Shown in pieces: positions 3,041-58,250 of a stretch of DNA of 64,000 nucleotides; positions within the stretch are counted from its first letter, which is position 1, and every line of letters starts with the position of its first letter. The DNA lies in NCBI GenBank assembly GCA_038380435.1, contig JAWZYU010000017.1, positions 26,284,483-26,348,482 of the forward strand, written 5' to 3'. Both the position numbers and the translations under genes were made by a program. The DNA is from Ryuthela nishihirai (taxonomy: Eukaryota > Arthropoda > Arachnida > Araneae > Heptathelidae). Below the pieces are notes generated by a model, which made no database searches, had not been told where the DNA came from, and worked only from the letters and a program-made list of their open reading frames with translations.

Positions 3041-3187
3041 GAGCTGTACAGCAAGAGCTACGAGGCTGTGGGAGTGTTGTTTGCAGCCATGCCCAACTTC
3101 TCCGACTTCTATACCGAAGACTCTGTCAACAACCAAGGACTAGAATGCCTACGCTTCCTGAACGAAGTTATCTCTGACTATGATGCG
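3041..3187 (+). CDS. ADCY3: Adenylyl cyclase C2 domain, first exon in window
   Basis: This exon encodes 49 residues from [10 protein letters not shown] to NEVISDYDA, the start of the second catalytic (C2) domain of a membrane adenylyl cyclase, which makes cAMP from ATP on the cytoplasmic face of the membrane. The motif series [24 protein letters not shown] and ISDYD is diagnostic of the family. The acceptor is a pyrimidine-rich tract ending in AAG at 3040. The donor is GCG then GTTAGT at 3188. The phase is 0 and joins cleanly to the next exon (LLEQPRFKD). Upstream exons (membrane spans, C1 domain) lie outside the window. The last part of the exon and its splice site are copied many times immediately downstream. 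By eye the best match is the type 3 group; the isoform is less certain than the family. Confidence 0.93.
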
Positions 3188-3887
3188 GTTAGTGAATATT
3201 GCTTCCTAAACGAAGTTATCTCTGACTATGATGCGATTAGTGAATACTGTTCGTAAACGAAGTTATCTCTGACTATGATGCGATTAGTGAATATTGTTTC
3301 GTAAACGAGGTTATCTCTGACTATGATGCGGTTAGTGAATATTGTTTCCTAAACGAAGTTATCTCTGACTATGATGCGATTAGTGAATATTGTTCGTAAA
3401 CGAAGTTATCTCTGACTATGATGCGATTAGTGAATACTGTTCGTAAACGAAGTTATCTCTGACTATGATGCGATTAGTGAATATTGTTTCGTAAACGAAG
3501 TTATCTCTGACTATGATGCGGTTGGTGAATATTGCTTCCTAAACGAAATAAACGAAACTATCTCTGACTATGATGCGATTAGTGAATATTGTTTCCTAGA
3601 CGAGGTTATCTCTGACTGTGATGCGGTTAGTGAATATTGCTTTTCCTAAACGAGGTTATCTCTGACTATGATGCGGTTAGTGAATATTGTTTCCTAAACG
3701 AAGTTATCTCTGACTATGATGCGATTAGTGAATATTGTTTCCTAAACGAAGTTATCTCTGACTATGATGCGATTAGTGAATATTGTTTCGTAAACGAAGT
3801 TATCTCTGACTATGATGCGGTTGGTGAATATTGCTTCCTAAACGAAATAAACGAAACTATCTCTGACTATGATGCGATTAGTGATTT
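3160..3887 (+). repeat. Tandem array of exon-end plus 5' splice site, left part
   Basis: Fifteen copies (the first is the exon itself) of a 47-48 bp unit, recognised by TCTCTGACTATGATGCG at about 3171, 3219, 3266, 3314, 3362, 3409, 3456, 3504, 3561, 3609, 3659, 3707, 3755, 3803 and 3860. The unit is the last 30 or so bases of the cyclase exon ([10 protein letters not shown]) plus the first 15-20 bases of the intron including the donor. Donor positions read GTTAG or GTTGG in some copies and ATTAG in the rest. Copies at 3561 and 3860 share a longer spacer (AACGAAATAAACGAAAC). A further copy lies beyond the R2-like insertion. Confidence 0.95.
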
Positions 3888-3962
3888 GAGGGGATAACCA
3901 CCATAACGGATACTTCCCCCCCCATTAGGGAAAATTTACGAAGATCTTCAAGGGAGGACCTA

Positions 3963-4337
3963 ATGAGAGCTCTGCAATTCCTAGAGGCTAAAGCGTTGAG
4001 TAATGAGGAGTGGGATGAGGGTTTATCCACGGTGGTCACTCATTTCGACGAGTCACGACTTATACGTGCTCCGAGTTTGGGAAGGAGAGCTGATGCCCCC
4101 CCACGGTTACAACAGACACCTATGAATTCTGAGATGACCTGCCTGGAAACGACCATTACTGATACTGAACTGGTCAATATTAGTTCCGATTCGAACTGGT
4201 CAGTAGTGGAAAGTGATATTGAGAAGATCATGAGGGATTTCTCTGCTAAGTGGATCACGCTTGACGAGTGGGAGGAGACAATGCTGGAGGAGGATGTTGA
4301 GATAGTGGCCCCCCCACAGAGAATGATGACCCCTTGA
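3963..4337 (+). pseudogene. R2-like element, N-terminal ORF segment
   Basis: The frame begins with MRALQFLEAKALSNEEWDEG and runs 124 residues. It is acidic and holds several DEWEE/EEWDE-type motifs, but no zinc finger is visible. It ends in a C-rich stretch (about 4311-4317), after which the same composition continues in another frame (4334-4630), suggesting one original N-terminal domain split by homopolymer frameshifts. No function is assigned beyond its place ahead of the reverse transcriptase. Confidence 0.6.
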
Positions 4338-4778
4338 TCGGTCCTGCGAGCCTGATGGAGGAAGTATCTGGCTCTTCCATTCCTGGAGTGGGAATGACCT
4401 CTGCCAATGGCCTGGTTAGTGTGGCCGATCCTGTAGAAATGGGGGGGGGTTGCTTATCTTTGGACCCCATGAGCGACGAGGAACATTCCTACGACTTCAG
4501 TGATCATGGTAGGAGTACTGTGTATACTAATTCTCGGGAGCAGAGTATTTTGGAACCGGAACCCCTGAGGGGTCCCCCCCCCTTCCCCTTCTCCTTCCTA
4601 TTCTGTGGATGTTGCTACGGATATTGCTAACGATTATGCTGCGGATGAATGGTTAGAAGTAATTGAGGATGACATGGATAGTGTGGAGGGAACAGTTCCC
4701 CCGAAGTTAACGGAAAAACAATCGTCATGGATTGACAGATTGCAACATCCCTGTGATTGGACGGACTTTGAGACCTCT

Positions 4779-4834
4779 GTGAATGCTTACGTCCAATCGC
4801 AACGCTGTGAATGCTTACGTCCAATCGCAACGCT
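4779..4834 (+). repeat. 28-bp direct tandem duplication in the R2-like ORF
   Basis: The 28-bp segment at 4779-4806 (starting GTGAATGCTTACG, ending CGCAACGCT) is repeated exactly at 4807-4834. Because 28 is not a multiple of three it breaks the reading frame. Confidence 0.95.
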
Positions 4835-5320
4835 ACAGAGAAACATCGTAGGCGACAGGGACCCGGTGTCCTATCTACGGACCGTCCCAATATCAGAAGA
4901 CCGACTCCTTATCTGAGACCAGCAATGGGCCCGATGAGGGCGAGTAACCCCCTAAGGGTGGGGGAGCCCTACTATCGGGGCAAGGAAGCGTCCCCGTTAC
5001 AAAGAGATTATAAAACAAACGCGAAGAAAACGTTCGAGCGGATTACTGAAAATCCTAAACCATTCTGCAATATCCCTCGCAACACCTTGGAGAATTACTT
5101 CACAAAAATCTATCGGTCGTCTAATACACCATGTGACAAAAGATTACTTTCTAACTTCGACCCTCCTTCTGTTGAAAGTACTGATCTCCTTAAGAACCCC
5201 ATTACTGGTAAGGAGATAATGGACAAACTATTGGAAATATCTAACACAGCTCCGGGTAGGGATGGGGTCCTCTACAAGGACTGGAGGGCGAGTGACCCGG
5301 ATGCCACACGTTGGCCGTAA
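4811..5320 (+). pseudogene. R2-like element, region before the reverse transcriptase
   Basis: This 169-residue frame ends with NTAPGRDGVLYKDWRASDPD. The APGxDG motif and the following KDWR..DP are typical of the segment just ahead of the RT core in R2/NeSL-type elements. The core continues in a different frame from about 5311, so at least one frameshift lies near 5300-5320. The first part overlaps the 28-bp direct duplication that shifted the upstream frame. Confidence 0.75.
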
Positions 5321-6333
5321 TCTTCAACCACTGTTTGAAGGCGGGTCGAGTTCCAGAAGAGTGGAAAAAGCCAAACGTGATACTCGCCTACAAAAAGGGG
5401 AATGACATGCTTCCGGAGAACTGGAGACCCATTGCGCTCCTAAACACGATTTCGAAGTTGTATACTGGGGTAATAAGTGCTAGAATGGGAAAATGGGCCG
5501 CCAGTAACAACCGTCTCTCTGACTGTCAACGTGGTTTCAGAGAAACTGAAGGTTGCTCTGATTCCATTTTTTTGCTGCAGCAGATGGTGGACGATACCAG
5601 AAGGAATAAAAGACAAAATTGTATGGCGTGGCTAAATATCGAAAATGCATTCGGTACGTTGAACCACTCCTACATCCTGAATGTACTGGAAGCGATGGGA
5701 CTACCTGGGACATACATCAGGGTAGTGGAGGACCTCTACAAGAACAGTTACAACAGTATAAGATCAAATGAGGGTTGGACCCGGGATCTGTTAATGGCGT
5801 CAGGGGTCAAACAAGGATGTCCGCTGAGCCCTTTATTATTCAATCTGGCACTAGAGCCTATTCTCAGAAGTTTAAGTAGCTCCATGGACAGGGCTTACCG
5901 TCTAATGGGACGGGAGATCCCAGTACTTGTATTCGCCGATGACATGGTGATAACGTCCTGCTCACCGACAGCTCTTCAGGCCCAGCTAAATCTATTGAGC
6001 AAGTGTTGCAACCCGACTGGGTTGAAGTTCAACCAAAGCAAATGCACCACCCTACACCTGGATTGCAGGAAAACGATCAGTGTACATAGTACGATGTTCT
6101 ATATTAATAGTAAACCCTGCAATACCCTCAAAGATCATGATTCGGTGAAATACTTAGGAGCCAGAACAGGGTTCAGGAATGAACCGACCCCACTGGAGCG
6201 AATCTCGAAAATCAAGAACGACTTACTGTTGATCAGTGCCGCTCCCTTGACCCCCTGGCAAAAAATCCATGCCGTTAAAACTTTCCTAATGACAAGACTC
6301 GACTACTTGTTTCCTAGACGAGGTTATCTCTGA
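5311..6333 (+). pseudogene. R2-like reverse transcriptase core
   Basis: A 340-residue frame covers the RT fingers, palm and thumb: NWRPIALLNT (about residues 38-46), CQRGF (72-76), WLNIENAFG (107-115), GVKQGCPLSPLLFN (165-178), FADDM (208-212) and a thumb ending LTPWQKIHAVKTFLMTRLDY. The first catalytic aspartate, normally in WLDxxNAFG, is asparagine here (residue 109), so this copy should be inactive. FADD keeps the other two. The last seven residues (FPRRGYL) are read from the host array. The R2/NeSL assignment rests on FADD, the NAFG and GVKQGxPLSP motifs, and the absence of an APE endonuclease upstream. Confidence 0.85.
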
Positions 6334-6369
6334 CTATGATGCGGTTAGTGAATATTGTTTCCTAAACGA
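6310..6369 (+). repeat. Exon-end tandem array, right remnant
   Basis: TTTCCTAGACGAGG then TTATCTCTGACTATGATGCG with GTTAGTG is one full unit and the start of another, continuing the array of 3160-3887 on the far side of the R2-like element. The element therefore sits inside the array. Confidence 0.9.
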
Positions 6370-6373
6370 TTAT

Positions 6374-6424
6374 TAGTGATCTGGCAACCTTCGTGTACAG
6401 TACACGAAGGTTGCCAGATCACTA
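6374..6424. repeat. Perfect 51-bp palindrome
   Basis: TAGTGATCTGGCAACC... at 6374-6398 is the exact reverse complement of 6400-6424 around a single central A at 6399. Its right arm is the start of dispersed repeat D, so it looks like an inverted duplication of that repeat's end. Confidence 0.93.
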
Positions 6425-6512
6425 ATTTCTAAAACAATCGTTGCCAGATATTTTTTTTGAATTCTGTAATCAACCATAGTGTTGGGATATTTTTTGAGCC
6501 ACTGTACGATAC
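6400..6512 (+). repeat. Dispersed repeat D, copy 2
   Basis: A second copy of the repeat at 1981-2104, with the same order of motifs and a terminus CCACTGTAC. It lies 45 bp before the second cyclase exon. Confidence 0.8.
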
Positions 6513-6557
6513 AATCAATTTCTCTTTAACTTCTGTTTTTTCCACATTTCTTTACAG

Positions 6558-6656
6558 CTTCTTGAGCAACCGAGGTTCAAAGATATAATCAAGATCAAAA
6601 CAATTGGGTCAACTTACATGGCAGCAAGCGGTCTCAATAACGATGAAACTTATCAG
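6558..6656 (+). CDS. ADCY3: Adenylyl cyclase C2 domain, second exon in window
   Basis: The exon has 33 codons (LLEQPRFKD to NNDETYQ). The acceptor is TTTACAG at 6551-6557 and the donor is GTAAGC at 6657; both ends are phase 0. It carries KIKTIGSTYMAASG, the most conserved C2 stretch. The lysine of IKTIG is the residue known in mammalian cyclases to contact the adenine ring and help give ATP specificity. The exon is too short to appear as an open frame of its own and was found from the motif plus matching splice phases. The preceding intron (about 3.4 kb) holds the exon-end tandem array and an R2-like element. Confidence 0.93.
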
Positions 6657-8335: not shown

Positions 8336-8722
8336 TGGGGCGGGGGTGCTCAGTCGGTAGCGTGCCAGGCTCGTAATCTGTAGTTTCCAGGTTCGAGTCC
8401 CAGCTGGGTCAGCGTTGAGATTTATCTCCGCAAAATTTCTCTGCCCTGCCCATGGTCAGTAGGGGACACCGATGGGCTTGAAAAGGCCGCCGTCCGTCGG
8501 ATGGGACGTTAAGCCGTGGCCCCGTGTGCGGGAGAGCCATACCCTGTGCACGTTAAAGAACACGCTGGATGGCCTTGACGGGAGGCTACCATCTGTCTCC
8601 CAACAGCTGCTCCAGTGGGTCCCCTCCCCCAACCTTCTCTGAGCCTTCGGGGTCCATGTGACCTGGCCATTTAGCCCATGGTGTGCAAAAAAAGTGCCGC
8701 TCAGAGGTAAAACAGCCCAACA
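8336..8722 (+). repeat. SINE A, full length
   Basis: A 387-bp copy with the 14-bp duplication GCTAAATATTTACG at 8322-8335 and 8723-8736. Confidence 0.95.
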
Positions 8723-10939: not shown

Positions 10940-11063
10940 CCCAATGCTCCCGTGAAAGAGAAATGGGGCCATCTCGCCCAACTGACAGAATTCGCCCTGG
11001 CACTGAAGGATACTTTGACCTACATTAACAAGGAGAGTTTCAACAACTTTGTGCTCCGCATGG
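10940..11063 (+). CDS. ADCY3: Adenylyl cyclase C2 domain, third exon in window
   Basis: This exon encodes PNAPVKEKWGHLAQ, then LTEFALALKDTLTYIN and ESFNNFVLRMG: the helix that in cyclases follows the variable loop, then the strand before the catalytic centre. The acceptor is CCTTTTCAG at 10931-10939 and the donor GTAAGA at 11064. Length is 124 nt, so it ends one base into a glycine codon that the next exon completes. The loop between IKTIGSTYMAASG and LTEFAL is short compared with many vertebrate isoforms. The flanking introns carry several SINE A copies. Confidence 0.93.
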
Positions 11064-11419: not shown

Positions 11420-11808
11420 GGGGCGGGGGTGGCTCAGTCGGTAGCGCGCCAGGCTCGTAATCTGTAGTTCCCAGGTTCGAGTCCCAGCTGGGTCAGTGTT
11501 GAGATTAAAATTCAAAATTCCCCGCCCTGCCCACGGTCAGTAGGGGACACCGATGGGCTTGGAAAGGCCGCCGTCCGTCTGATGGGACGTTAAGCCGTGG
11601 CCCCGTGTGTGGGAGAGCCATACCCTGTGCACGTTAAAGAACACACTGGATGGCCTTGACGGGAGGCTACCATCTGTCTCCCAACAGCTGTTCCAGTGGG
11701 TCCCCTTCCCCAACCTTCTCTGAGACTTCGGGGTCCATGTGACCTGGCCATTTAGCCCATGGTGTGAAAAAAAGTGCCGCTCAGAGGTAAAACAACCCAA
11801 CAACCCAC
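11420..11808 (+). repeat. SINE A, full length
   Basis: Head at 11420-11495 with intact box A and box B, body near consensus, and a tail ending AAAACAACCCAACAACCC. Target duplication not clear. Confidence 0.93.
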
Positions 11809-12932
11809 AGGTCTTACTTGATAGGTTATGTGGAGGGAGAACTGTCACCACCTTCTTATCTGTCTTTACAAGGCCCGTTTTTTCCTCAATGTTGCTCTCT
11901 GTGCAACAGCATGCCTAATTAAGGGTTAATTGAAATTTAATGAATACGTTTTACATTTAATTAATGAATACATTTTAATTGAAATTTAAAGATTTTAATT
12001 AAATTACTTCATTAATTTAATTAAATTATTTAATCCTCGTGAGAAGACTACATTTAACAATCAAACGTCCTGTGAAAAAGTTCCAAAGTTTTATTCTAAT
12101 AATGTCTGTGACGTCATATCTTTAATCTTGAAAATAGGAATTACTTTCAGAAATATAAAGTTATATTATCCTACATAATATTAATATACATTCGCTTTCT
12201 TTAATTTTGATTTAACGAACTTAATTAGACTTTTAACAATTTATTTCCATATCAGCTATTTATTTATTTATTTATACTAAAATGAATATTCAAAGACTGT
12301 TAAAAGGTTCTAAAATTATCATCTCACTAATTGCTGATAATAATATCTTCAAACTTTCTTTCCTATTTTAACTTTTATCTCTAAAACTATACACATTTGA
12401 ATTTTTCTTTGAAAACAAAACTTACCTCATGTTATCTTTTAAAACTCTTACTCATCTTTCTTAATAGCAACTTCTCTAAGTTCTACTAAAAAATTTTACG
12501 CTGAGAATAGAAAAATGTTTTTAATGATTCAGGTTAAAGCAAGTTAATTAACCTGGAAATATTCATGCAAGGATGTGTTAAGAGAGAGATTAAATTACTT
12601 CTGGTTCTAACAAAATTTTGTTAAAAATGGGCTTTTTAAACAGTTTACTTTTTTAACTTTTTTAAAGTTTAATAATGGTCTCGCGAGAACTCACTGCAAC
12701 ACATTCCTCGTTCAATGAATGTTTCAGGCAAAAATATTCGCAAGTTTTCAATGCAATAATTGACGATAGTAATTTAACAATATTATGTCGCTAAAGCTGA
12801 ATGCTGCATGCTCAAATGTCACCTAAAAATGTGGCAAATAAAATATGTTTCATTTCGCGACAAAAATTTGTTTCATAGCATATAAGTGTTAACTCTATAC
12901 AGTCATAAAAGGATACCTATATTTTAAAATGC
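11809..12932. other. AT-rich intron, low complexity
   Basis: Contains repeated ATTTAATTAA-type runs at 11920-12040 and a TTTA run near 12250. No gene or known element. Confidence 0.5.
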
Positions 12933-13557: not shown

Positions 13558-14130
13558 TAATTGTGTGTCGAGCACAATTACTGGTATTTTAAACTAATCT
13601 TTATCTTTCTGGTATTAAAAGTTTTCTTTATTTTATTGATATCGTGATGTAAATAAAAACTAATATTTGTCTTTCTGGTATTAATCAAAAGTTTGCTTTA
13701 TATTGCATTGATATTATGATGAAAATAAAAAAAACTCCTTTGACTTTGTCTTTCTCATACAGTGAAATGTCAGTGAAACGAAGTCGGGTTCGGTTACCAA
13801 TATATATTCTTTGCAATGATATTTCGTTAGAGGTAAACACAGTAAAGTCAGAACAATAGTGCATATTATAAAATAAACAGAATATATATTTGACCAGAAT
13901 TTAAATCATTGCAACATTGAGGGATGATAAAAAACAAAACTCAATAAAGATTTTTAAAAAGTATACGTCGTATTGTTGAACGATTTTCATTTTATAAATT
14001 TCATTCTAACGTTAACATAAGGATTCAGAGTAAATTGGTAGGAGATAAAAAAAATTCGTTTTACCGAATATTTAGTTATTCTGCCATTCGTTACACTGAC
14101 CTGTCATTGTATTAATCGAAGGTTTGCTTT
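13558..14130. other. Intron with degenerate relatives of the 94-bp satellite
   Basis: Two weak copies at about 13600-13760 (TTTCTGGTATTAATCAAAAG, ATTGATATTATGATG); the rest has no recognised feature. Confidence 0.6.
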
Positions 14131-14694
14131 CTATTGTGTTGGCATCATGATACGAACAAAAACTCTTCTGACTTTCTTGTATTCATCAAAAGTTATGTTT
14201 TAAATTGTGATGTGAACGAACATTCTATTGTGTTGGCATCATGATGCGAACAAAAACTCTTCTGACTTTCTTGTATTCATCAAAAGTTATGTTTTAAATT
14301 GTGTTGTGAACGAACATTCTATTGTGTTGGCATCATGATACGAACAAAAACTCTTCTGACTTTCTTGTATTCATCAAAAGTTATGTTTTAAATTGTGATG
14401 TGAACGAACATTCTATTGTGTTGGCATCATGATGCGAACAAAAACTCTTCTGACTTTCTTGTATTCATCAAAAGTTATGTTTTAAATTGTGTTGTGAACG
14501 AACATTCTATTGTGTTGGCATCATGATACGAACAAAAACTCTTCTGACTTTCTTGTATTCATCAAAAGTTACGTTTTAAATTGTGATGTGAACGAACATT
14601 CTATTGTGTTGGCATCATGATGCGAACAAAAACTCTTCTGACACTCTTGTATTCATCAAAAGTTATGTTTTAAATTGTGATGTGAACGAACATT
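14131..14694 (+). repeat. 94-bp satellite, six copies with a dimeric higher-order pattern
   Basis: Units start (CTATTGTGTTGGCATCATGA) at 14131, 14225, 14319, 14413, 14507 and 14601. They alternate GATACG/GATGCG and, with one exception in the last unit, GTGATGTG/GTGTTGTG, so the true repeating unit is about 188 bp. Degenerate relatives lie at about 13600-13760. The array ends about 20 bp before the fourth-exon acceptor. Confidence 0.96.
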
Positions 14695-14714
14695 CCTTCG
14701 GAATTGTTTTTCAG

Positions 14715-14839
14715 GTATTAATCAAGGCCCCATTACAGCTGGAGTAATAGGAGCTAGAAAGCCTCATTACGATATGTGGGGAAACACAGTTAATGTCGCC
14801 AGCAGGATGGAAAGCACGGGCAAAGCCGGTTGCATTCAG
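14715..14839 (+). CDS. ADCY3: Adenylyl cyclase C2 domain, fourth exon (catalytic core)
   Basis: The exon encodes [36 protein letters not shown] and KAGCIQ. In the known C1-C2 structures the aspartate of HYDMWGN recognises adenine, and the asparagine and arginine of NTVNVASRM bind and stabilise the triphosphate. All three are present, so this is a catalytically competent C2 half. The acceptor is TTTTTCAG at 14707-14714 and the donor GTAGG at 14840. Length is 125 nt: two bases complete the split glycine codon and the exon ends in phase 0. A 94-bp satellite ends only about 20 bp upstream of the acceptor. Confidence 0.95.
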
Positions 14840-16492: not shown

Positions 16493-19400
16493 AGTAGATA
16501 GGGAGAAGGAAGAAAGAGATAGGGAAGAAAGAAAATTCGAAAGGGAGTATAGAAGAGAGAAGGCAGAAAGGGATAGGGAGAATGAAGAGAGTGATAGGGA
16601 AGAAGGATCATTGGAAAGGGAGTATAGAAGAGAGAAGGCAGAAAGGGATAGGGAGAATGAAGAAGGTGATAGGGAAGAAAGAAGATTGGAAGTGCAGTAT
16701 AGAAGAGAGAAAGCAGAAAGGGATAGAGAGAATGAAGAAAGTGATAGGGAAGAAAGAAAATTGGAAAGGGAGTATAGAAGAGAGAAGGCAGAAAGGGATA
16801 GGGAGAATGAAGAGAGTGATAGGGAAGAAGGATGATTGGAAAGGTAGTATAGAAGAGAGAAGGCAGAAAGGGATAGGGAGAATGAAGAGAGTGATAGGGA
16901 AGAAGGATGATTGGAAAGGGAGTATAGAAGAGAGACTGCAGAAAGTGATAGGGAAGAAGGATGATTGGAAATGGAGTATAGAAGAGAGAAGGCAGAAAGG
17001 GATAGGGAGAATGAAGAAAGTGATAGGGAAGAAAGAAGATTGGAAGGGCAGTATAGAAGAGAGAAAGCAGAAAGGGATAGAGATAATGAAGAGAATGATA
17101 GGGAAGAAGGATGACTGGAAAGGGAGTATAGAAGAGAGAAGGCAGAAAGGGATAGGGAGAATGAAGAAAGTGATAGGGAAGAAAGAAGATTGGAAGGGCA
17201 GTATAGAAGAGAGAAAGCAGAAAGGGATAGAGATAATGAAGAAAGTGATAGGGAAGAAAGAAAATTGGAAAGGGAGTATAAGAGAGAAGGCAGAAAGGGA
17301 TAGGGAGAATGAAGAGAGTGATAGGGAAGAAGGATGGTTCGAAAGGGAGTATAGAAGGGAGAAGGCAGAAAGGGATAGGGAGAATGATGAAAGTGATGAA
17401 GAAGATTGGAAGGGCAGTATAGAAGAGAGAAGGCAGAAAGGGATAGAGAGAATGAAGAAAGTGATAGGGAAGAAAGAAAATTGGAAAGGGAGTATAGAAG
17501 AGAGAAGGCAGAAAGGGATAGGGAGAATGAAGAGAGTGATAGGGAAGAAGGATGATTGGAAAGGGAGTATAGAAGAGAGAAGGCAGAAAGGGATAGGGAG
17601 AATGAAGAAGGTGATAGGGAAGAAAGAAGATTGGAAGGGCAATATAGAAGAGAGAAAGCAGAAAGGGATAGAGAGAATGAAGAGAGTGATAGGGAAGAAG
17701 GATGATTGGAAAGGGAGTATAGAAGAGAGAATGAAGAAAGTGATAGGGAAGAAAGAAGATTGGAAGGGCAGTATAGAAGAGAGAAAGCAGAAAGGGATAG
17801 AGAGAATGAAGAGAGTGATAGGGAAGAAGGATGATTGGAAAGGGAGTATAGAAGAGAGAATGAAGAAAGTGATAGGGAAGAAAGAAGATTGGAAGGGCAG
17901 TATAGCAGAGAGAAAGCAGAAAGGGATAGACAGAATGAAGAAAGTGATTGGGAAGAAAGAAAATTGGAAAGGGAGTATAGAAGAGAGAAGGCAGAAAGGG
18001 ATAGGGAGAATGAAGAGAGTGATAGGGAAGAAGGATGATTGGAAAGGGAGTATAGAAGAGAGACTGCAGAAAGTGATAGGGAAGAAGGATGATTGGAAAT
18101 GGAGTATAGAAGAGAGAAGGCAGAAAGGGATAGGGAGAATGAAGAGAGTGATAGGGAAGAAGGATGATTGGAAAGGGAGTATAGAAGAGAGAAGGCAGAA
18201 AGGGATAGGGAGAATGAAGAAATTGACAGGGAAGAAAGAAGATTGGAAGGGCAGTATAGAAGAGAGAAAGCAGAAAGGGATAGAGAGAATGAAGAAAGTG
18301 ATAGGGAAGAAAGAAAATTGGAAAGGGAGTATAGAAGAGAGAAGGCAGAAAGGGATAGGGAGAATGAAGAGAGTGATAGGGAAGAAAGAAGATTGGAAGG
18401 GCAGTATAGAAGAGAGAAAGAAGAAAGGGATAGAGAGAATGAAGAAAGTGATAGGGAAGAAAGAAAATTGGAAAGGGAGTATAGAAGAGAGAAGGCAGAA
18501 AGGGATAGGGAGAATGAAGAGAGTGATAGGGAAGAAGGATGATTGGAAAGGGAGTATAGAAGAGAGAAGGCAGAAAGGGATGAGGAGAATGAAGAAAGTG
18601 ATAGGGAAGAAAGAAGATTGGAAGGGCAGTATAGAAGAGAGAAAGAAGAAAGGGATAGAGAGAATGAAGAAAGTGATAGGGAAGAAAGAAAATTGGAAAG
18701 GGAGTATAGAAGAGAGAAAGCAGAAAGGGATAGAGAGAATGAAGAGAGTGATAGGGAAGAAGGATGATTGGAAAGGGAGTATAGAAGAGAGAATGAAGAA
18801 AGTGATAGGGAAGAAAGAAGATTGGAAGGGCAGTATAGAAGAGAGAAAGCAGAAAAGGATAGAGAGAATGAAGAAAGTGATAGGGAAGAAAGAAAATTGG
18901 AAAGGGAGTATAGAAGAGAGAAGGCAGAAAGTGATAGAGAGAATGAAGAAAGTGATAGGGAAGAAAGAAAATTGGAAAGGGAGTATAGAAGAGAGAAGGC
19001 AGAAAGGGATAGGGAGAATGAAGAAGGTGATAGGGAAGAAAGAAGATTGGAAGGGCAGTATAGAAGAGAGAAAGCAGAAGGAATAGAGAGAATGAAGAAA
19101 GTGATAGGGAAGAAAGAAAATTGGAAAGGGAGTATAGAAGAGAGAAGGCAGGAAGGGATAGGGAGAATGAAGAAGGTGATAGGGAAGAAAGAAGATTGGA
19201 AGGGCAGTATAGAAGAGAGAAAGCAGAAGGAATAGAGAGAATGAAGAAAGTGATAGGGAAGAAAGAAAATTGGAAAGGGAGTATAGAAGAGAGAAGGCAG
19301 AAAGTGATAGAGAGAATGAAGAAAGTGATAGGGAAGAAAGAAAATTGGAAAGGGAGTATAGAAGAGAGAAGGCAGAAAGGGATAGGGAGAATGAAGAAGG

Positions 19401-22400
19401 TGATAGGGAAGAAAGAAGATTGGAAGGGCAGTATAGAAGAGAGAAAGCAGAAGGAATAGAGAGAATGAAGAAAGTGATAGGGAAGAAAGAAAATTGGAAA
19501 GGGAGTATAGAAGAGAGAAGGCAGGAAGGGATAGGGAGAATGAAGAGAGTGATAGGGAAGAAGGATGATTGGAAAGGGAGTATAGAAGAGAGAAGGCTGA
19601 AAGGGATAGGGAGAATGAAGATAGTGATAGGGAAGAAAGAGGATTGGAAGGGCAGTATAGAAGAGAGAAAGCAGAAAGGGATAGAGAGAATGAAGAGAGT
19701 GATAGGGAAGAAGGATGATTGGAAAGGGAGTATAGAAGAGAGAATGAAGAAAGTGATAGGGAAGAAAGAAGATTGGAAGGGCAGTATAGAAGAGAGAAAG
19801 AGAAAGGGATAGGGAGAATGAAGAGAGTGATAGGGAAGAAGGATGATTGGAAAGGGAGTATAGAAGAGAGAAGGCTGAAAGGGATAGGGAGAATGAAGAT
19901 AGTGATAGGGAAGAAAGAGGATTGGAAGGGCAGTATAGAAGAGAGAAAGCAGAAAGGGATAGAGAGAATGAAGAGAGTGATAGGGAAGAAGGATGATTGG
20001 AAAGGGAGTATAGAAGAGAGAATGAAGAAAGTGATAGGGAAGAAAGAAGATTGGAAGGGCAGTATAGAAGAGAGAAAGCAGAAAGGGATAGGGAGAATGA
20101 AGAGAGTGATAGGGAAGAAGGATGATTGGAAAGGGAGTATAGAAGAGAGAAGGCTGAAAGGGATAGGGAGAATGAAGATAGTGATAGGGAAGAAAGAAGA
20201 TTGGAAGGGCAGTATAGAAGAAAGAAAGCAGAAAGGGATAGAGAGAATGAAGAAAGTGATAGGGAAGAAAGAAAATTGGAAAGGGAGTACAGAAGAGAGA
20301 AGGCAGAAAGGGATAGGGAGAATGAAGAGAATGATAGGGAAGAAAGAAGATTGGAAGGGCAGTATAGAAGAGAGAAAGCAGAAAGGGATAGAGAGAATGA
20401 AGAAAGTGATAGGGAAGAAAGAAAATTGGAAAGGGAGTATAGAAGAGAGAAGGCAGAAAGGGATTGGGAGAATGAAGAGAGTGATAGGGAAGAAGGATGA
20501 TTGGAAAGGGAGTATAGAAGAGAGAAGGTAGAAAGGGATAGGGAGAATGAAGACAGTGATAGGAAAGAAAGAAAATTGGAAAGGTAGTATAGAAGAGAGA
20601 AGGCAGAAAGGGATAGGGAGAATGAAGAGAGTGATAGGGAAGAAGGATGATTGGAAAGGGAGTTTAGAAGAGAGAATGAAGAAAGTGATAGGGAAGAAAG
20701 AAGATTGGAAGGGCAGTATAGAAGAGAGAAAGCAGAAAGGGATAGAGAGAATGAAGAAAGTGATAGGGAAGAAAGAAAATTGGAAAGGGAGTATAGAAGA
20801 GAGAAGGCAGAAAGGGATTGGGAGAATGAAGAGAGTGATAGGGAAGAAGGATGATTGGAAAGGAAGTATAGAAGAGAGAAGGCAGAAAGGGATAGGGACA
20901 ATGAAGAAAGTGATAGGGAAGAAAGAAGATTGGAAGGGCAGTATAGAAGAGAGAAAGCAGAAAGGGATAGAGAGAATGAAGAAAGTGATAGGGAAGAAAG
21001 AAAATTGGAAAGGGAGTATAGAAGAGAGAAGGTAGAAAGGGATAGGGAGAATGAAGACAGTGATAGGAAAGAAAGAAAATTGGAAAGGGAGTATAGAAGA
21101 GAGAAAGCAGAAAGGGATAGGGAGAATGAAGAGAGTGATAGGGAAGAAGGATGATTGGAAAGGGAGTATAGAAGAGAGAAGGCAGAAAGGGATAGGGAGA
21201 ATGAAGAGAATGATAGGGAAGAAAGAAGATTGGAAGGGCAGTATAGAAGAGAGAAAGCAGAAAGGGATAGAGAGAATGAAGAAAGTGATAGGGAAGAAGG
21301 ATGATTGGAAAGGGAGTATAGGAGAGAGAAGGCAGAAAGGGATAGGGACAATGAAGAAAGTGATAGGGAAGAAAGAAGATTGGAAGGGCAGTATAGAAGA
21401 GAGAAAGCAGAAAGGGATAGAGAGAATGAAGAAAGTGATAGGGAAGAAAGAAAATTGGAAAGGGAGTATAGAAGAGAGAAGGTAGAAAGGGATAGGGAGA
21501 ATGAAGAGAGTGATAGGGAAGAAGGATGATTGGAAAGGGAGTATAGAAGAGAGAAAGCAGAAAGGGATAGGGAGAATGAAGAAAGTGATAGGGAAGAAAG
21601 AAGATTGGAAGGGCAGTATAGAAGAGAGAAAGCAGAAAGGGATAGAGAGAATGAAGAAAGTGATAGGGAAGAAAGAAAATTGGAAAGGGAGTATAGAAGA
21701 GAGAAGGCAGGAAGGGATAGGGAGAATGAAGAAGGTGATAGGGAAGAAAGAAGATTGGAAGGGCAGTATAGAAGAGAGAAAGCAGAAGGAATAGAGAGAA
21801 TGAAGAAAGTGATAGGGAAGAAAGAAAATTGGAAAGGGAGTATAGAAGAGAGAAGGCAGAAAGGGATAGGGAGAATGAAGAGAGTGATAGGGAAGAAGGA
21901 TGATTGGAAAGGGAGTATAGAAGAGAGAAGGCAGAAAGGGATAGAGAGAATGAAGAAAGTGATAGCGAAGGAGGATGATTGGAAGGGCAGTATAGAAGAG
22001 AGAAAGCAGAAAGGGATAGAGAGAATGAAGAAAATGATAGGGAAGAAAAGAAATTAAAAAGGGAGTATAGAAGAGAGAAGGCAGGAAGGGATAGGGAGAA
22101 TGAAGAGAGTGATAGGGAAGAAGGATGATTGGAAAGGGAGTATAGAAGAGAGAAGGCAGAAAGGGATAGGGAGAATGAAGAAGGTGATAGGGAAGAAAGA
22201 AGATTGGAAGGGCAGTATAGAAGAGAGAAAGCAGAAAGGGATAGAGAGAATGAAGAAAGTGATAGGGAAGAAAGAAAATTGTTAAGGGAGTATAGAAGAG
22301 AGAAGGCAGAAAGGGATAGGGAGAATGAAGAGAGTGATAGGGAAGAAGGATGATTGGAAAGGGAGTATAGAAGAGAGAAGGCAGAAAGGGATAGGGAGAA

Positions 22401-23865
22401 TGAAGAAAGTGATAGGGAAGAAAGAAGATTGGAAGGGCAGTATAGAAGAGAGAAAGCAGAAAGGGATAGAAAGAATGAAGAAAGTGATAGGGAAGAAAGA
22501 AAATTGGAAAGGGAGTATAGAAGAGAGAAGGCAGAAAGGGATAGGAAGAATGAAGAGAGTGATAGGGAAGAAGGATGATTGGAAAGGGAGTATAGAAGAG
22601 AGAAGGCAGAAAGGGATAGGGAGAATGAAGAAAGTGATAGGGAAGAAAGAAGATTGGAAGGGCAGTATAGAAGAGAGAAAGCAGAAAGGGATAGAAAGAA
22701 TGAAGAAAGTGATAGGGAAGAAAGAAAATTGGAAAGGGAGTATAGAAGAGAGAAGGCAGAAAGGGATAGGAAGAATGAAGAGAGTGATAGGGAAGAAGGA
22801 TGATTGGAAAGGGAGTATAGAAGAGAGAAGGCAGGAAGGGATAGGGAGAATGAAGAGAGTGATAGGGAAGAAGGATGATTGGAAAGGGAGTATAGAAGAG
22901 AGAAGGCAGAAAGGGATAGGGAGAATGAAGAAGGTGATAGGGAAGAAAGAAGATTGGAAGGGCAGTATAGAAGAGAGAAAGCAGAAAGGGATAGAGAGAA
23001 TGAAGAAAGTGATAGGGAAGAAAGAAAATTGTTAAGGGAGTATAGAAGAGAGAAGGCAGAAAGGGATAGGGAGAATGAAGAGAGTGATAGGGAAGAAGGA
23101 TGATTGGAAAGGGAGTATAGAAGAGAGAAGGCAGAAAGGGATAGGGAGAATGAAGAAAGTGATAGGGAAGAAAGAAGATTGGAAGGGCAGTATAGAAGAG
23201 AGAAAGCAGAAAGGGATAGAAAGAATGAAGAAAGTGATAGGGAAGAAAGAAAATTGGAAAGGGAGTATAGAAGAGAGAAGGCAGAAAGGGATAGGAAGAA
23301 TGAAGAGAGTGATAGGGAAGAAGGATGATTGGAAAGGGAGTATAGAAGAGAGAAGGCAGAAAGGGATAGGGAGAATGAAGAAAGTGATAGGGAAGAAAGA
23401 AGATTGGAAGGGCAGTATAGAAGAGAGAAAGCAGAAAGGGATAGAAAGAATGAAGAAAGTGATAGGGAAGAAAGAAAATTGGAAAGGGAGTATAGAAGAG
23501 AGAAGGCAGAAAGGGATAGGAAGAATGAAGAGAGTGATAGGGAAGAAGGATGATTGGAAAGGGAGTATAGAAGAGAGAAGGCAGAAAGGGATAGGGAGAA
23601 TGAAGAAAGTGATAGGGAAGAAAGGAGATTGGAAGGGCAGTATAGAAGAGAGAAGGCAGAAAGGGATAGAGAGAATGAAGAATGTGATAGGGAAGAAAGA
23701 AGATTGGAAAGGGAGTATAGAAGAGAGAAGGGAGAAAGGGATAGGGAGAATGAAGAAAGTGATAGGGAAGAAAGAAGTTTGGAAAGGGAGTATAGAAGGG
23801 AGAAGGGAGAAAGGGATAGGGAGAATGAAGAAAGTGATAGGGAAGAAATAAGATTGGAAAGGGAG
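16493..23865 (+). repeat. Purine-rich 75-bp tandem array, main block
   Basis: About 98 units of 75 bp, close to 87% purine on the + strand. Three unit subtypes recur: GGATGATTGGAAAGGGAG, AGAAGATTGGAAGGGCAG and AGAAAATTGGAAAGGGAG. From about 22100 they are ordered as 225-bp trimers, and a 750-bp block repeats. Shortened units lacking GGCAGAAAGGGATAGG-type segments occur (for example near 17725, 17855, 19735). The 75-bp period keeps frames open on both strands, giving spurious long ORFs: acidic/basic ERDRENEESDREE on +, and SLSLSAFSLL or PFLLSLFYT on -. Confidence 0.97.
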
Positions 23866-24506
23866 TGTCAGGCTAGAGGCCTTTTTAAATATTTTTTTTT
23901 GTTCGGGTTTTGTATGTTATTTCGGATTTCACCAAAAGGGCATATGCTACGTGGGAGGTCCTCAGTCCCAGCATCTGGAACGTTAATTGAAGTAGCAGTG
24001 TCCAGAGGAGGGAAGTCACCCATGGCTAGCGTCTGCTGATAGGTGACTCTGAAGCCGGAGGCTAGCGGCCTTGCCAGATGGCTGAAGCAGAGGGAGAAGG
24101 GAAAAAGAGCGTTGGCAACGACCAGGAAAAGAGAGCCAGTCGAAGAACGAACGCGTGAAGACGTAAAATTGTAAAGCTGGTAAATGCCGACTGGAAATAA
24201 CGGCATTGGGCTCTGTGAATACAGCTGAACAGGCATAGTAAGCTGTTGATGTAATGCTATGTAATTGAGCATATATCCTTGTCTATCAAGCATGTTTGGA
24301 AGGTTCAATAAATAATTGTTATATTTAAGTAAAGGCTGAAGTTGAACCAATTTATTGGGGAGGAGCCTCAGTATTGAGTCCCTGCAATCGTGATAAAACC
24401 TTTGATTTTATCCGAAAGACCCTTTCACTCGTCGCGTATTGCGATCAAACCGAGGGGACATTCCTAGGGGTCCCAATAGACAGACAAACGTAGAAGTAAC
24501 ATCACA
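23866..24506. mobile_element. Solo LTR, 641 bp, in the purine-rich array
   Basis: The element begins TGTCAGG and ends CATCACA (TG..CA termini) and is flanked by the 5-bp duplication GGGAG at 23861-23865 and 24507-24511; the unoccupied array unit reads GGAAAGGGAGTATAG. A poly(A) signal AATAAA lies at 24307-24312. No internal retrotransposon sequence is present, so it is a solo LTR left by LTR-LTR recombination. A 5-bp duplication fits Gypsy or BEL/Pao; the family is not assigned. Confidence 0.9.
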
Positions 24507-24511
24507 GGGAG

Positions 24512-24671
24512 TATAGAAGAGAGAAAGAAGATTGGAAAGGAAGTATAGAAGAGAGAAAGCAGAAAGGGATAGGGAGAATGAAGAAAGTGATAGGGAAGAA
24601 AGAAGATTGGAAGGGAAGTATAGAAGAGAGAAAGAAGATTGGAAAGGAAGAATAGAAGAGAGAGAGAGAGA
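24512..24671 (+). repeat. Purine-rich 75-bp array, right remnant
   Basis: The same unit continues beyond the solo LTR (TATAGAAGAGAGAAAG, GATTGGAAAGGAAG), with shorter units, ending in (GA)n at the junction with the piggyBac relic. Confidence 0.93.
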
Positions 24672-25378
24672 AAATTTATCATTTACATCTAATTGGTCAT
24701 TATCTGATAAGTGTATATTTTGTTTGATGGAATCAAATCTATACCTACTCATGCAATTTCTTACCAATGGTATAACTTTGTTCTCATCCTTCGACCAATA
24801 TATTTTTATAGTTGGTAAGGTATGGTAACCGGTAAAAATCAATATACCACAAAAGCGTTTCAGACCTGCCTTGCTTAGTTCAAAAGAATGTCGATTATGA
24901 TCATTCGCATATTTTTTTGAATAACCAGCAATATTTTCCCAGACATCATCACTAAAATAAAAAGAAAAAATATCGTATGGAGACTTGCCACTAATTTTGT
25001 TTTTAATTTCCTTTATCATAATATGTTCTTCTTTTGTGGTAAACTTTTGTAAGTCGGATTTTCTTTTTTCCACTTCGGAATAACTTTATTTGCCTTTGTT
25101 TTGACAGCTGTTCTAGTAGAAGTTTTCAGTTTCTTGGAACTTGATGCTCTAGGTTGGTCTTCTTCGAGATCTTGAGCTTCATCAGGAAAATTTGCATGGA
25201 CCTCATAGGTTTCAGCTACGTCTGGCAAAACGTTTTCACTCTCCCATATATCATCACTAATATCCTCCTCATCTGTAAGTTCGTCAACCGTTGGTGGTAT
25301 GTACACCGAGTCAATATTTTCAGTTTGTCGCAAATCGTCATCCTCTTCTAATATAGCCATTAGCTCTGCAGTTGACAA
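24672..25378 (-). pseudogene. piggyBac-type transposase, N-terminal part, frameshifted
   Basis: On the - strand, 25378 to 25016 encodes an acidic N-terminus (MSTAELMAILEEDDD, VDELTDEEDISDD). After one frameshift near 25020-25070 the frame continues with SGKSPYDIFSFYFSDDVWEN, LKRFCGILIFTGYHTLP and CMSRYRFDSIKQNIHLSDND, the recognisable start of the DDE_Tnp_1_7 (piggyBac) domain. It stops at 24672, where the purine-rich array begins, before any catalytic aspartate. I found no continuation at the left end of the array (about 16.4 kb). It is inactive. Confidence 0.85.
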
Positions 25379-26760: not shown

Positions 26761-26902
26761 GTTAAGACAATGTTATAAATTAGGTAAGCCTTGGAATGAG
26801 CTATCGTATAGCTTGAACTTGCAGTTAAAAGATTAATGTGAATAAATATTATCTATGTGATCCTTTAAGTGTGTCTGATAGCACTATTTGCTTCTCTTTC
26901 AG

Positions 26903-27109
26903 GTTGTGGAAGAGACTGCTCACATTCTAGAAGAGTTTGATTACGTCTTCGAGCAACGAGGCCTGGTGGCAGTTAAGGGAAAAGGCAATCTTATGACTTA
27001 CTATCTTCTAGGTCGAGCTTCAGAAATCAGTAAGCTGCCACGCAATGCCAATGCTACACCTCCTGGAAGTATAAACTCTGACCTTCCTCCCGCTTCCATC
27101 AGTGGGTAG
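26903..27109 (+). CDS. ADCY3: Adenylyl cyclase C2 domain, terminal exon
   Basis: This exon has 68 codons plus TAG, from VVEETAHILEEF to LPPASISG. It holds the final core strands, including GLVAVKGKGNLMTYYLLGR; the lysine of VKGKG is the phosphate-binding lysine of C2. The acceptor is CTTCTCTTTCAG at 26891-26902. After the domain come about 30 low-complexity residues (EISKLPRNANATPPGSINSD...) as a short C-terminal tail. The stop ends at 27109. The 12-kb intron before it contains the purine-rich array, a solo LTR and a piggyBac relic, so transcripts must splice across all of these. Confidence 0.93.
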   Translation, partial: VVEETAHILEEFDYVFEQRGLVAVKGKGNLMTYYLLGRASEISKLPRNANATPPGSINSDLPPASISG

Positions 27110-56488: not shown

Positions 56489-58250
56489 ATGGCTAGGTGG
56501 GCTGAGCATTTCAGTGATGTTCTAAGCAATGTGGTTAGTTCTACTCTCATTGTTTGTAACGATGATAGGTGCATTACTGGCTTTAATGTTGGCCCTATAA
56601 CACAATCTGAAGTTATTTTGGTTCTTTCTAAACTTAAACTACATAAACCCCAGGGGTGGATGAAATTACTATGGAAATGCTTAGAGCTGGGAATGTTTCA
56701 GTTGCCACATGGATGATTGAAATTTTGAATATCTTTTATGATAAAGGCATGATTCCTAAGAATTTTACCAGAGCTATTATCCCTATTTTTAAAAAAGGTG
56801 ATCGCAGTTCTTGTGATAACTAAAGGGGTATCAGCCTACTCTCCGTTCCAGGTAAAGTTCTTTGCATGATTATGCTAAATAGAATTAAGAATCTGGTTTA
56901 CAGGCAATTGTGTGATGAGCAATGTGGATTCAGAAGTGGTAGAGGATGTGTGGATCAGATATTTTCACTTAGGCAGATTCTTGAGAAATTTAGAGTTTCA
57001 GAAATCTTTGGTTCCTACCTTTGTTGATTTCAAAAAGGCTTTTGACTTTGTTGATCGTCATAATTTGTGGTTGATTGTGAGATCATATGGTATACCAGAC
57101 AAGTTAGTTAACATAATGAAAGCTCTCTATAATAACACTGAGTCGTGTGTGAGAGTTGGTAAGGCTTGTAGCAATTGGTTTAGCATTACTTCTGGTGTTC
57201 GACAAGGGTGCATTTTGTCTCCTTTTCTCTTTAGTTTAGTTATTGATTATGTTATGTAAAATTCACTGCAAGGGAAAGATTTTAACCTTAAATGGTCTGG
57301 AGATACAAAAATTTCTGATTTAGATTATGCTGATGATTTAGCTCTTTTGGAAAATGATGTTGATGAGATGAACTCTTTCATTTGAGCTGTTGTTGAGACT
57401 GGTAGTAGGTAGGTTTGGTTATAAACAGAGAGAAAACTAAAGTGATAAAAATTGGTCAGGCAGTCTGTGATTTCGGTTGGGTTGTTTTACCTCTGAGCAG
57501 CACTTTTTTTCCACACCATGGGCTAAATGTCCAGGTCACATGGACTCCAAAGGCTCGGAGAAGGTTGGGGGAGGGGTTGATCGACTGGAACAGCTGTTGG
57601 GAGACAGATGGCAGCCTCCTGTCAAAGCCATCCAGTGTGTTCTTCAACGTGCACAGAGTATGATTTTCCCGCACACGGGGCCACGGCTTAACGTCCCATC
57701 CAGCGGACGGCGGCCTTTCCAAGCCCATCGCTGTCCCCTACTGACCGTGGACAGGGTGAGGAATTTTGCGGAGATAAATCTCAACGCTGACCCAGCTGGG
57801 ACTCAAACCTGGGAACTACAGATTACGAGCCTGGTGCGCTACCGACTGAGCCACCCCTACCCCAGTCTGTGATTCAGTTAATCTGAATGGTTGCAGTCTT
57901 GAGCAGGTCACAGTTTAATTATCTTGGGAGCTATATAACAGATACTGGTGATGTGCGGCATGAGATTAACAGATGAATAGGGATTGCTGCCGGGACTTTT
58001 AAGAATCTATAGAGTGTGTGGAAAAATAGGCATAATACATCTAAAGAGTAAAGTTAGACTGTATAATAGTTTGGTTCTTTCTAAAGTTAGTTATGGTGGT
58101 GAAACTTGGACGCTTTATACACAAGATAACAGGAAACTAGATGCTTTTGATTCTAGATGCTTATGCAATATCTTGGGCATTAGGTGGTTCAACTTTGCAA
58201 CTAATGATGAGGTTCGGCAAAGGAGTCGGGTTGGGTTGTTTTACCTCTGA
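56489..58250 (+). pseudogene. RTE LINE reverse transcriptase, broken
   Basis: ARWAEHFSDVLSN, GPITQSEVILVLSKLKLHKP, then VDFKKAFDFVDRHNLW (first catalytic Asp), GVRQGCILSPFLFSLVIDY and, after a stop at 57257-57259, YADDLALLEN at about 57324-57353. The distal part SKVRLYNSLVLSKVSYGGET follows the first SINE insertion. In-frame stops and frameshifts rule out function. Confidence 0.85.
57473..57862 (-). repeat. SINE A inserted in an RTE LINE
   Basis: A near-consensus copy with CAGTCTGTGATT at 57461-57472 and 57863-57874. It interrupts the LINE after its YADD motif. Confidence 0.95.

What the first reader, a model, noticed from the sequence alone, without database searches (positions are those of the whole stretch)
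3160..6369. Tandem amplification of a coding exon end together with its 5' splice site
About 16 copies of a 47-48 bp unit made of the last codons of the cyclase exon (NEVISDYDA) plus the first intron bases. Seven copies keep a GT at the donor (units at 3171, 3314, 3504, 3609, 3659, 3803, 6327) and nine read ATTAG instead. Skipping the first donor meets a stop at 3254-3256 before the next GT copy, so only the first donor preserves the protein. The rest are potential decoy splice sites, each with native exonic context. I know of no standard class for this.
Basis: partly seen in the sequence, partly recalled or inferred. Interest (0 to 1): 0.78.

Follow-up and report, generated by a model that had tools for sequence, protein, structure and literature searches.

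The report
Repeated splice-site minisatellite in ADCY3
The end of an adenylate cyclase exon, together with its splice site, is repeated sixteen times in what is probably a spider gene; this is a real but already described kind of repeat (a "mirage" minisatellite), most likely harmless to the gene.

Summary
Sixteen copies of a ~48-bp unit (33 bp of exon end plus 14-15 bp of intron) are present: 15 contiguous (3155-3884) and one at 6307-6369. Seven carry GT at the donor, nine AT. Read-through past the first donor meets a stop at 3254-3256. The gene is ADCY3 of a chelicerate, probably a spider.

"No standard class" is wrong. Minisatellites spanning exon-intron boundaries are called "mirages" in amphioxus (Adh3, globins, troponin C, PGBD5); many units keep splice signals, and splicing is reported as undisturbed. 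Human CBS (31-bp unit of exon end plus 7 intron bases, 16-21 copies) and ABCA7 (25-bp unit beginning with the exon-18 donor) are close parallels.

The unit history looks like ordinary repeat turnover. A 142-bp block is duplicated exactly, and one G>A event is enough to explain all nine AT donors. Exonic and intronic parts of the units vary about equally often.

Decoy function is untested, and nothing here favours it over neutrality. New member of a known kind; modest interest.

The parts
3041..3187 (+). ADCY3 exon A (147 nt, start of the C2 cyclase domain), ends NEVISDYDA, phase 0
   Evidence: translation, Pfam PF00211 E 6.6e-6, tblastn with spider proteins
3155..3884 (+). contiguous part of the array, units 1-15 (unit 1 overlaps the exon end); donor GT in units 1, 4, 8, 10, 11, 14 and AT in the other nine
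3188..3189 (+). first donor (GCG|GTTAGT), the only GT donor of the seven that precedes the stop
   Evidence: same junction in relatives
3254..3256 (+). first in-frame stop (TAA) if the first donor is not used
3444..3585 (+). block of units 7-9, identical at 142 of 142 positions to 3743-3884 (units 13-15)
3885..6306 (+). 2,422-bp piece of an R2-like retroelement inserted between units 15 and 16; ends inside the RT region; replaces 3 bp of the array
   Evidence: RVT_1 E 2.5e-37 in 5296-6330; R2 relatives; flank comparison
6307..6369 (+). unit 16 (GT at 6344) and the start of a further unit
6558..6656 (+). ADCY3 exon B ([33 protein letters not shown]), acceptor for the 3,370-bp intron that holds the array

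Best explanation
This is a minisatellite of the mirage type. A tandem duplication of the last 33 bp of ADCY3 exon A plus 14-15 bp of intron was amplified by unequal exchange or slippage to at least 16 units inside the intron. Splicing most likely uses the first donor, and the array leaves with the intron. The other GT copies are potential cryptic donors; if used they would bring in a premature stop and probably mRNA decay, so they give at most some unproductive splicing. Later a piece of an R2-like retroelement landed in the array. Shown: array anatomy, gene identity, stop position, block duplication, insertion into an existing array. Inferred: the starting duplication, use of the first donor, neutrality, decay of the alternatives.
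For: 16 units, none expected by chance. Intact reading frame over exons A-D with 91-93% identity to spider and horseshoe-crab ADCY3. Junction conserved: two leucines follow the motif in 197 of 225 cyclases with the motif, 240 listed rows examined. Exact 142-bp block duplicate. 53 of 55 pairs of variable unit characters are compatible with one tree. Similar rates of variable columns, 6 of 29 exonic and 3 of 14 intronic. Named precedents with undisturbed splicing (passages).
Against: No RNA was available, so use of the first donor is not shown. Four other copies have exactly the same donor hexamer and -3 to -1 context, and seven GTs inside the insert score higher than the true donor on a recalled human-like matrix, so some mis-splicing is likely. 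Diversity is lower in the exonic part (0.039 against 0.075), which could hint at weak constraint. In ABCA7 a similar array does alter splicing. Two of 55 character pairs conflict with a single tree.
Confidence: 0.8

Rival explanations
1. The extra GT copies are functional decoy or poison donors that lower or tune ADCY3 output by unproductive splicing.
For: Six later GT donors keep the native exonic context, and each lies after the stop at 3254-3256. In human ABCA7 the next unit's donor is used and gives a premature stop.
Against: 9 of 16 units have lost the donor; one event suffices for this. No clear excess of conservation in the exonic part. Mirages in amphioxus are reported not to disturb splicing. 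Human VNTR effects there are reported for disease risk, not regulation.
Confidence: 0.08
2. Assembly artefact: fewer units, or one, exist in the animal.
For: An exact 142-bp block repeat can be mis-assembled; the amphioxus globin paper notes an aberrantly assembled mirage in a draft.
Against: The units differ at 9 of 43 aligned columns plus spacers, and the retroelement insert separates units 15 and 16 in the right order; an artefact would not create these. It could still change the copy number.
Confidence: 0.07
3. The repeats belong to, or were made by, the R2-like retroelement.
For: Units flank the element on both sides.
Against: The two flanks match the uninterrupted neighbourhood of units 8-10 at 136 of 140 positions with 3 bp missing between; the next best placement gives 102. 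So the element entered an existing array. The unit is ADCY3 exon sequence.
Confidence: 0.03

Closest known systems
Mirages of amphioxus (Adh3, globins BflGb6 and BflGb9, troponin C, PGBD5)
   Same: Minisatellite-like tandem units spanning an exon-intron boundary; many but not all keep splice signals; block-wise turnover (passages of PMC3087553, and PMC3902484)
   Different: Probable spider, ADCY3; 16 units with a retroelement inside; no RNA or second haplotype seen here
Human CBS 31-bp VNTR, c.1444_1467+7(16_21)
   Same: Unit is the exon end (24 bp) plus 7 intron bases, 16-21 copies, single-base differences between units (passages of PMC2630376; exon 13-intron 13 in PMC1395315)
   Different: Shown to be polymorphic in people; unit always 31 bp; unrelated gene
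Human ABCA7 25-bp VNTR
   Same: First two bases of the unit are the exon 18 donor; use of the next unit's donor causes a frameshift and premature stop (passages of PMC5954066)
   Different: The unit lies in the intron, starting at the donor, without exon sequence; splicing effects were measured
Human tandem repeats at exon-intron boundaries in segmental duplications
   Same: Minisatellites at boundaries that can activate cryptic splice sites (passages of PMC2812944)
   Different: There novel introns are proposed to arise; here an existing intron grew

Membership tests
Mirage minisatellite | Tandem units that each span an exon-intron boundary | tested here: met
   33 bp exonic plus 14-15 bp intronic per full unit
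Mirage minisatellite | Many but not all units retain the splice signal | tested here: met
   GT in 7 of 16
Mirage minisatellite | Unit length in the published range (10 to about 160 bp) | tested here: met
   47-57 bp
Mirage minisatellite | Length instability between haplotypes or tissues | not testable with these tools
   one sequence only; an exact block duplicate points to turnover
Mirage minisatellite | Regular splicing undisturbed | not testable with these tools
   no RNA; relatives' proteins join at the same place
R2-type non-LTR retroelement (the insert) | Reverse transcriptase of the R2 group | tested here: met
   best solved relatives are R2 proteins; best hit named R2 Pol, 35% identity
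R2-type non-LTR retroelement (the insert) | Complete C-terminal part after the RT | tested here: not met
   similarity stops at residue 783 of 1169 of the R2 protein, where the array resumes
R2-type non-LTR retroelement (the insert) | Insertion in 28S rDNA (R2 proper; recalled) | tested here: not met
   it lies in the ADCY3 intron array

The most novel reading that the evidence does not exclude
The array is a length-variable splicing rheostat: decoy donors with native exonic context misdirect or slow removal of this intron, so that copy number sets the ADCY3 level through unproductive splicing, and the spread of the donor-less A variant is a compensating change.
Probability: 0.06. Interest if true: 0.6.

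Novelty: new member of a known kind. Interest (0 to 1): 0.25.

Why it matters
It adds what is probably a spider case to the mirage-type repeats described in lancelets and to the human CBS and ABCA7 repeats, with a readable unit history. The intron seems to have grown from roughly 200 bp to 3,370 bp by array growth plus a retroelement insertion (inference). It offers a natural test of how splicing picks one donor among near-identical neighbours, but it is not a new kind of thing.

Tried and rejected
Retroelement-borne repeats: rejected, because the flanks continue an older unit order. In-frame protein extension: each of the six later GT donors lies downstream of the stop, and 0 of the 295 proteins held (240 cyclase rows, 55 RT rows) contain an array peptide. 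Repeated selection against decoys: not needed, one G>A event suffices. Constraint on the exonic part: diversity is 0.039 exonic against 0.075 intronic with units 1 and 15 dropped, but 6 of 29 against 3 of 14 columns vary; no clear difference, no formal test run. Other mirages at the eight edges of exons A-D: only the exon A donor is repeated; the exon D acceptor query matches the 94-bp array only through its first 21 (intronic) bases. The edges of the last exon were not tested this way. Rfam on the window gave one weak tRNA match, of no use here. Papers: minisatellite with splice site, spider and intron gave 0; "mirage minisatellite" gave 0; "mirages" with "minisatellite" gave 5. Other precedent searches. 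The original Adh3 and CBS VNTR papers are not held and are known here only through papers that cite them.

Full report
What is there. The 24-bp core of the unit occurs 16 times in the window with up to 3 mismatches, all on the + strand between 3164 and 6343; 100 dinucleotide-preserving shuffles gave none. TRF reports period 48, 14.2 copies, 3155-3846, score 1082. Start-to-start steps are 47, 48 or 50, with two of 57, and a jump of 2467 to the last copy. A full unit is 33 bp of exon end followed by 14-15 bp that start with the donor. GT stands in 7 of 16 units and AT in 9 of 16.

The gene. Exon A (3041-3187), exon B (6558-6656), exon C (10940-11063) and exon D (14715-14839) join in frame to a cyclase domain; a further exon matches at about 26900-27103. 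The joined protein is 93% identical to adenylate cyclase type 3 of Trichonephila and Uloborus, 92% to Larinioides and 91% to one Tachypleus protein (7,983 candidates scored, the best 120 listed). The window is therefore a chelicerate's and probably a spider's; this rests on protein identity only. Of 240 cyclase rows examined (the 120 listed in each), 15 lacked the motif and 225 had it. In 197 of these 225 two leucines follow, as at the A|LL junction here. In 4 the motif is followed by VS, as expected if an intron starting GTNAGN were read through by a gene predictor (inference). This supports the first donor as the ancestral one. None of the 295 proteins held contains an array peptide.

Splicing consequences. 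With the first donor skipped, the frame runs through unit 2 and stops at 3254-3256, because unit 2 is 47 bp long. Each of the six later GT donors lies downstream of this stop, by 74 to 3087 nt. By general knowledge of nonsense-mediated decay such mRNAs would be targets. On a recalled, human-like matrix the true donor scores 6.1, equalled by four other copies, with 4.2 for the two GTTGGT copies; the donors of exons B, C and D score 11.7, 7.3 and 9.3; and 7 of the 193 GTs scored in 3041-6556, all inside the insert, score higher than the true donor. So the true donor is not privileged by its own sequence. Its position (a 147-nt exon) may decide, but this is inference.

History of the array. With the broken end of unit 15 left out, 9 of 43 aligned columns vary, each by a transition, and all 36 pairs of them pass the four-gamete test. 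Adding two spacer characters that the first test left out (one C/T, one C/G) gives 53 of 55 compatible pairs; the C/T spacer base conflicts with columns 3 and 8, which points to exchange between units or a repeated mutation. The donor column conflicts with none, so the nine AT donors need only one G>A event. Spacer lengths also vary (4, 5 or 7) and were not used. Positions 3444-3585 and 3743-3884 (units 7-9 and 13-15) are identical at 142 of 142. Exonic columns vary at 6 of 29 and intronic at 3 of 14, while mean pairwise diversity is 0.039 and 0.075 (units 1 and 15 dropped). This is what turnover of a neutral minisatellite would look like, though weak constraint is not excluded. The first duplication may have used CTTCCT, present at 3154-3159 in the exon and 3202-3207 in the intron (read; inference).

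The insertion. Between units 15 and 16 lie 2,422 bp (3885-6306) with a reverse transcriptase frame (PF00078, E 2.5e-37; the two other frames tested, 3885-4334 and 4811-5317, gave no Pfam match). Its best solved relatives are R2 proteins, and its best database hit is a Trichonephila protein named R2 Pol (35% identity). The flanks match the undisturbed neighbourhood of units 8-10 at 136 of 140 positions with exactly 3 bp missing between them; the next best placement scores 102. The piece thus entered an existing array, replacing 3 bp. Similarity to R2 stops at residue 783 of 1169, so the C-terminal part is missing. No other DNA copy was found in the window (blastn, E 1e-4). Without array and insert the 3,370-bp intron would be about 200 bp (188 bp remain right of the array).

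What is known. In amphioxus, minisatellites spanning exon-intron boundaries are called mirages. The globin paper (passages seen, PMC3087553) reports them in BflGb6 and BflGb9 and, citing earlier work, in Adh3; it says many but not all units contain splice signals, that lengths are unstable, and that regular splicing seems undisturbed. The PGBD5 paper (passage seen, PMC3902484) adds 60- and 108-bp repeats over splice sites and cites troponin C. In humans the CBS VNTR c.1444_1467+7(16_21) is, by its name, 24 exon bases plus 7 intron bases in 16-21 copies (passages, PMC2630376; exon 13-intron 13 in a table of PMC1395315). The ABCA7 VNTR begins with the exon 18 donor, and the next unit's donor is used in some transcripts, giving a premature stop (passages, PMC5954066). 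Human boundary repeats that activate cryptic splice sites are discussed in PMC2812944 (passages). The finding therefore has a named class and close human parallels.

Verdict. A real mirage-type minisatellite in an ADCY3 intron of what is probably a spider, interrupted by a piece of an R2-like element. Decoy function is possible but unsupported; RNA would decide. It is a new member of a known kind.

Noticed in passing
14129-14695: A second array (94 bp, 6 copies, 97% matches) ends 20 bp upstream of exon D's acceptor without including exon sequence.
   Followed up: partly
16497-23866: A 7.4-kb array of a purine-rich 75-bp unit in the intron between exon D and the last matched exon; several frames stay open for hundreds to thousands of codons.
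   Followed up: no
24408-25085 (-): A DDE_Tnp_1_7 (piggyBac-type, name recalled) transposase fragment (E 4.5e-20) whose open frame runs on into sequence like the 75-bp repeat.
   Followed up: no
6372-6426: Perfect palindrome (27-nt arms, 1 nt between) right after the last unit; it shares ATTAGTGA with the units, and the stretch after it is 89% alike to 1996-2100.
   Followed up: partly
2805-2939 and 2305-2385: Two long inverted repeats (56-nt and 31-nt arms) upstream of exon A, resembling small foldback elements.
   Followed up: no
e.g. 1431-1810, 8338-8720, 11420-11810: A repeat with a tRNA-like head (GTGGCTCAGTCGGTAGCGCGCCAGGCTCGTAATC...) recurs on both strands, probably a SINE family; seen by eye.
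   Followed up: no
56879-57259: A second reverse transcriptase fragment (PF00078, E 1.7e-10).
   Followed up: no
array units, 3155-6369: All nine variable columns of the aligned unit block are transitions; the one C/G difference lies in the spacer.
   Followed up: partly
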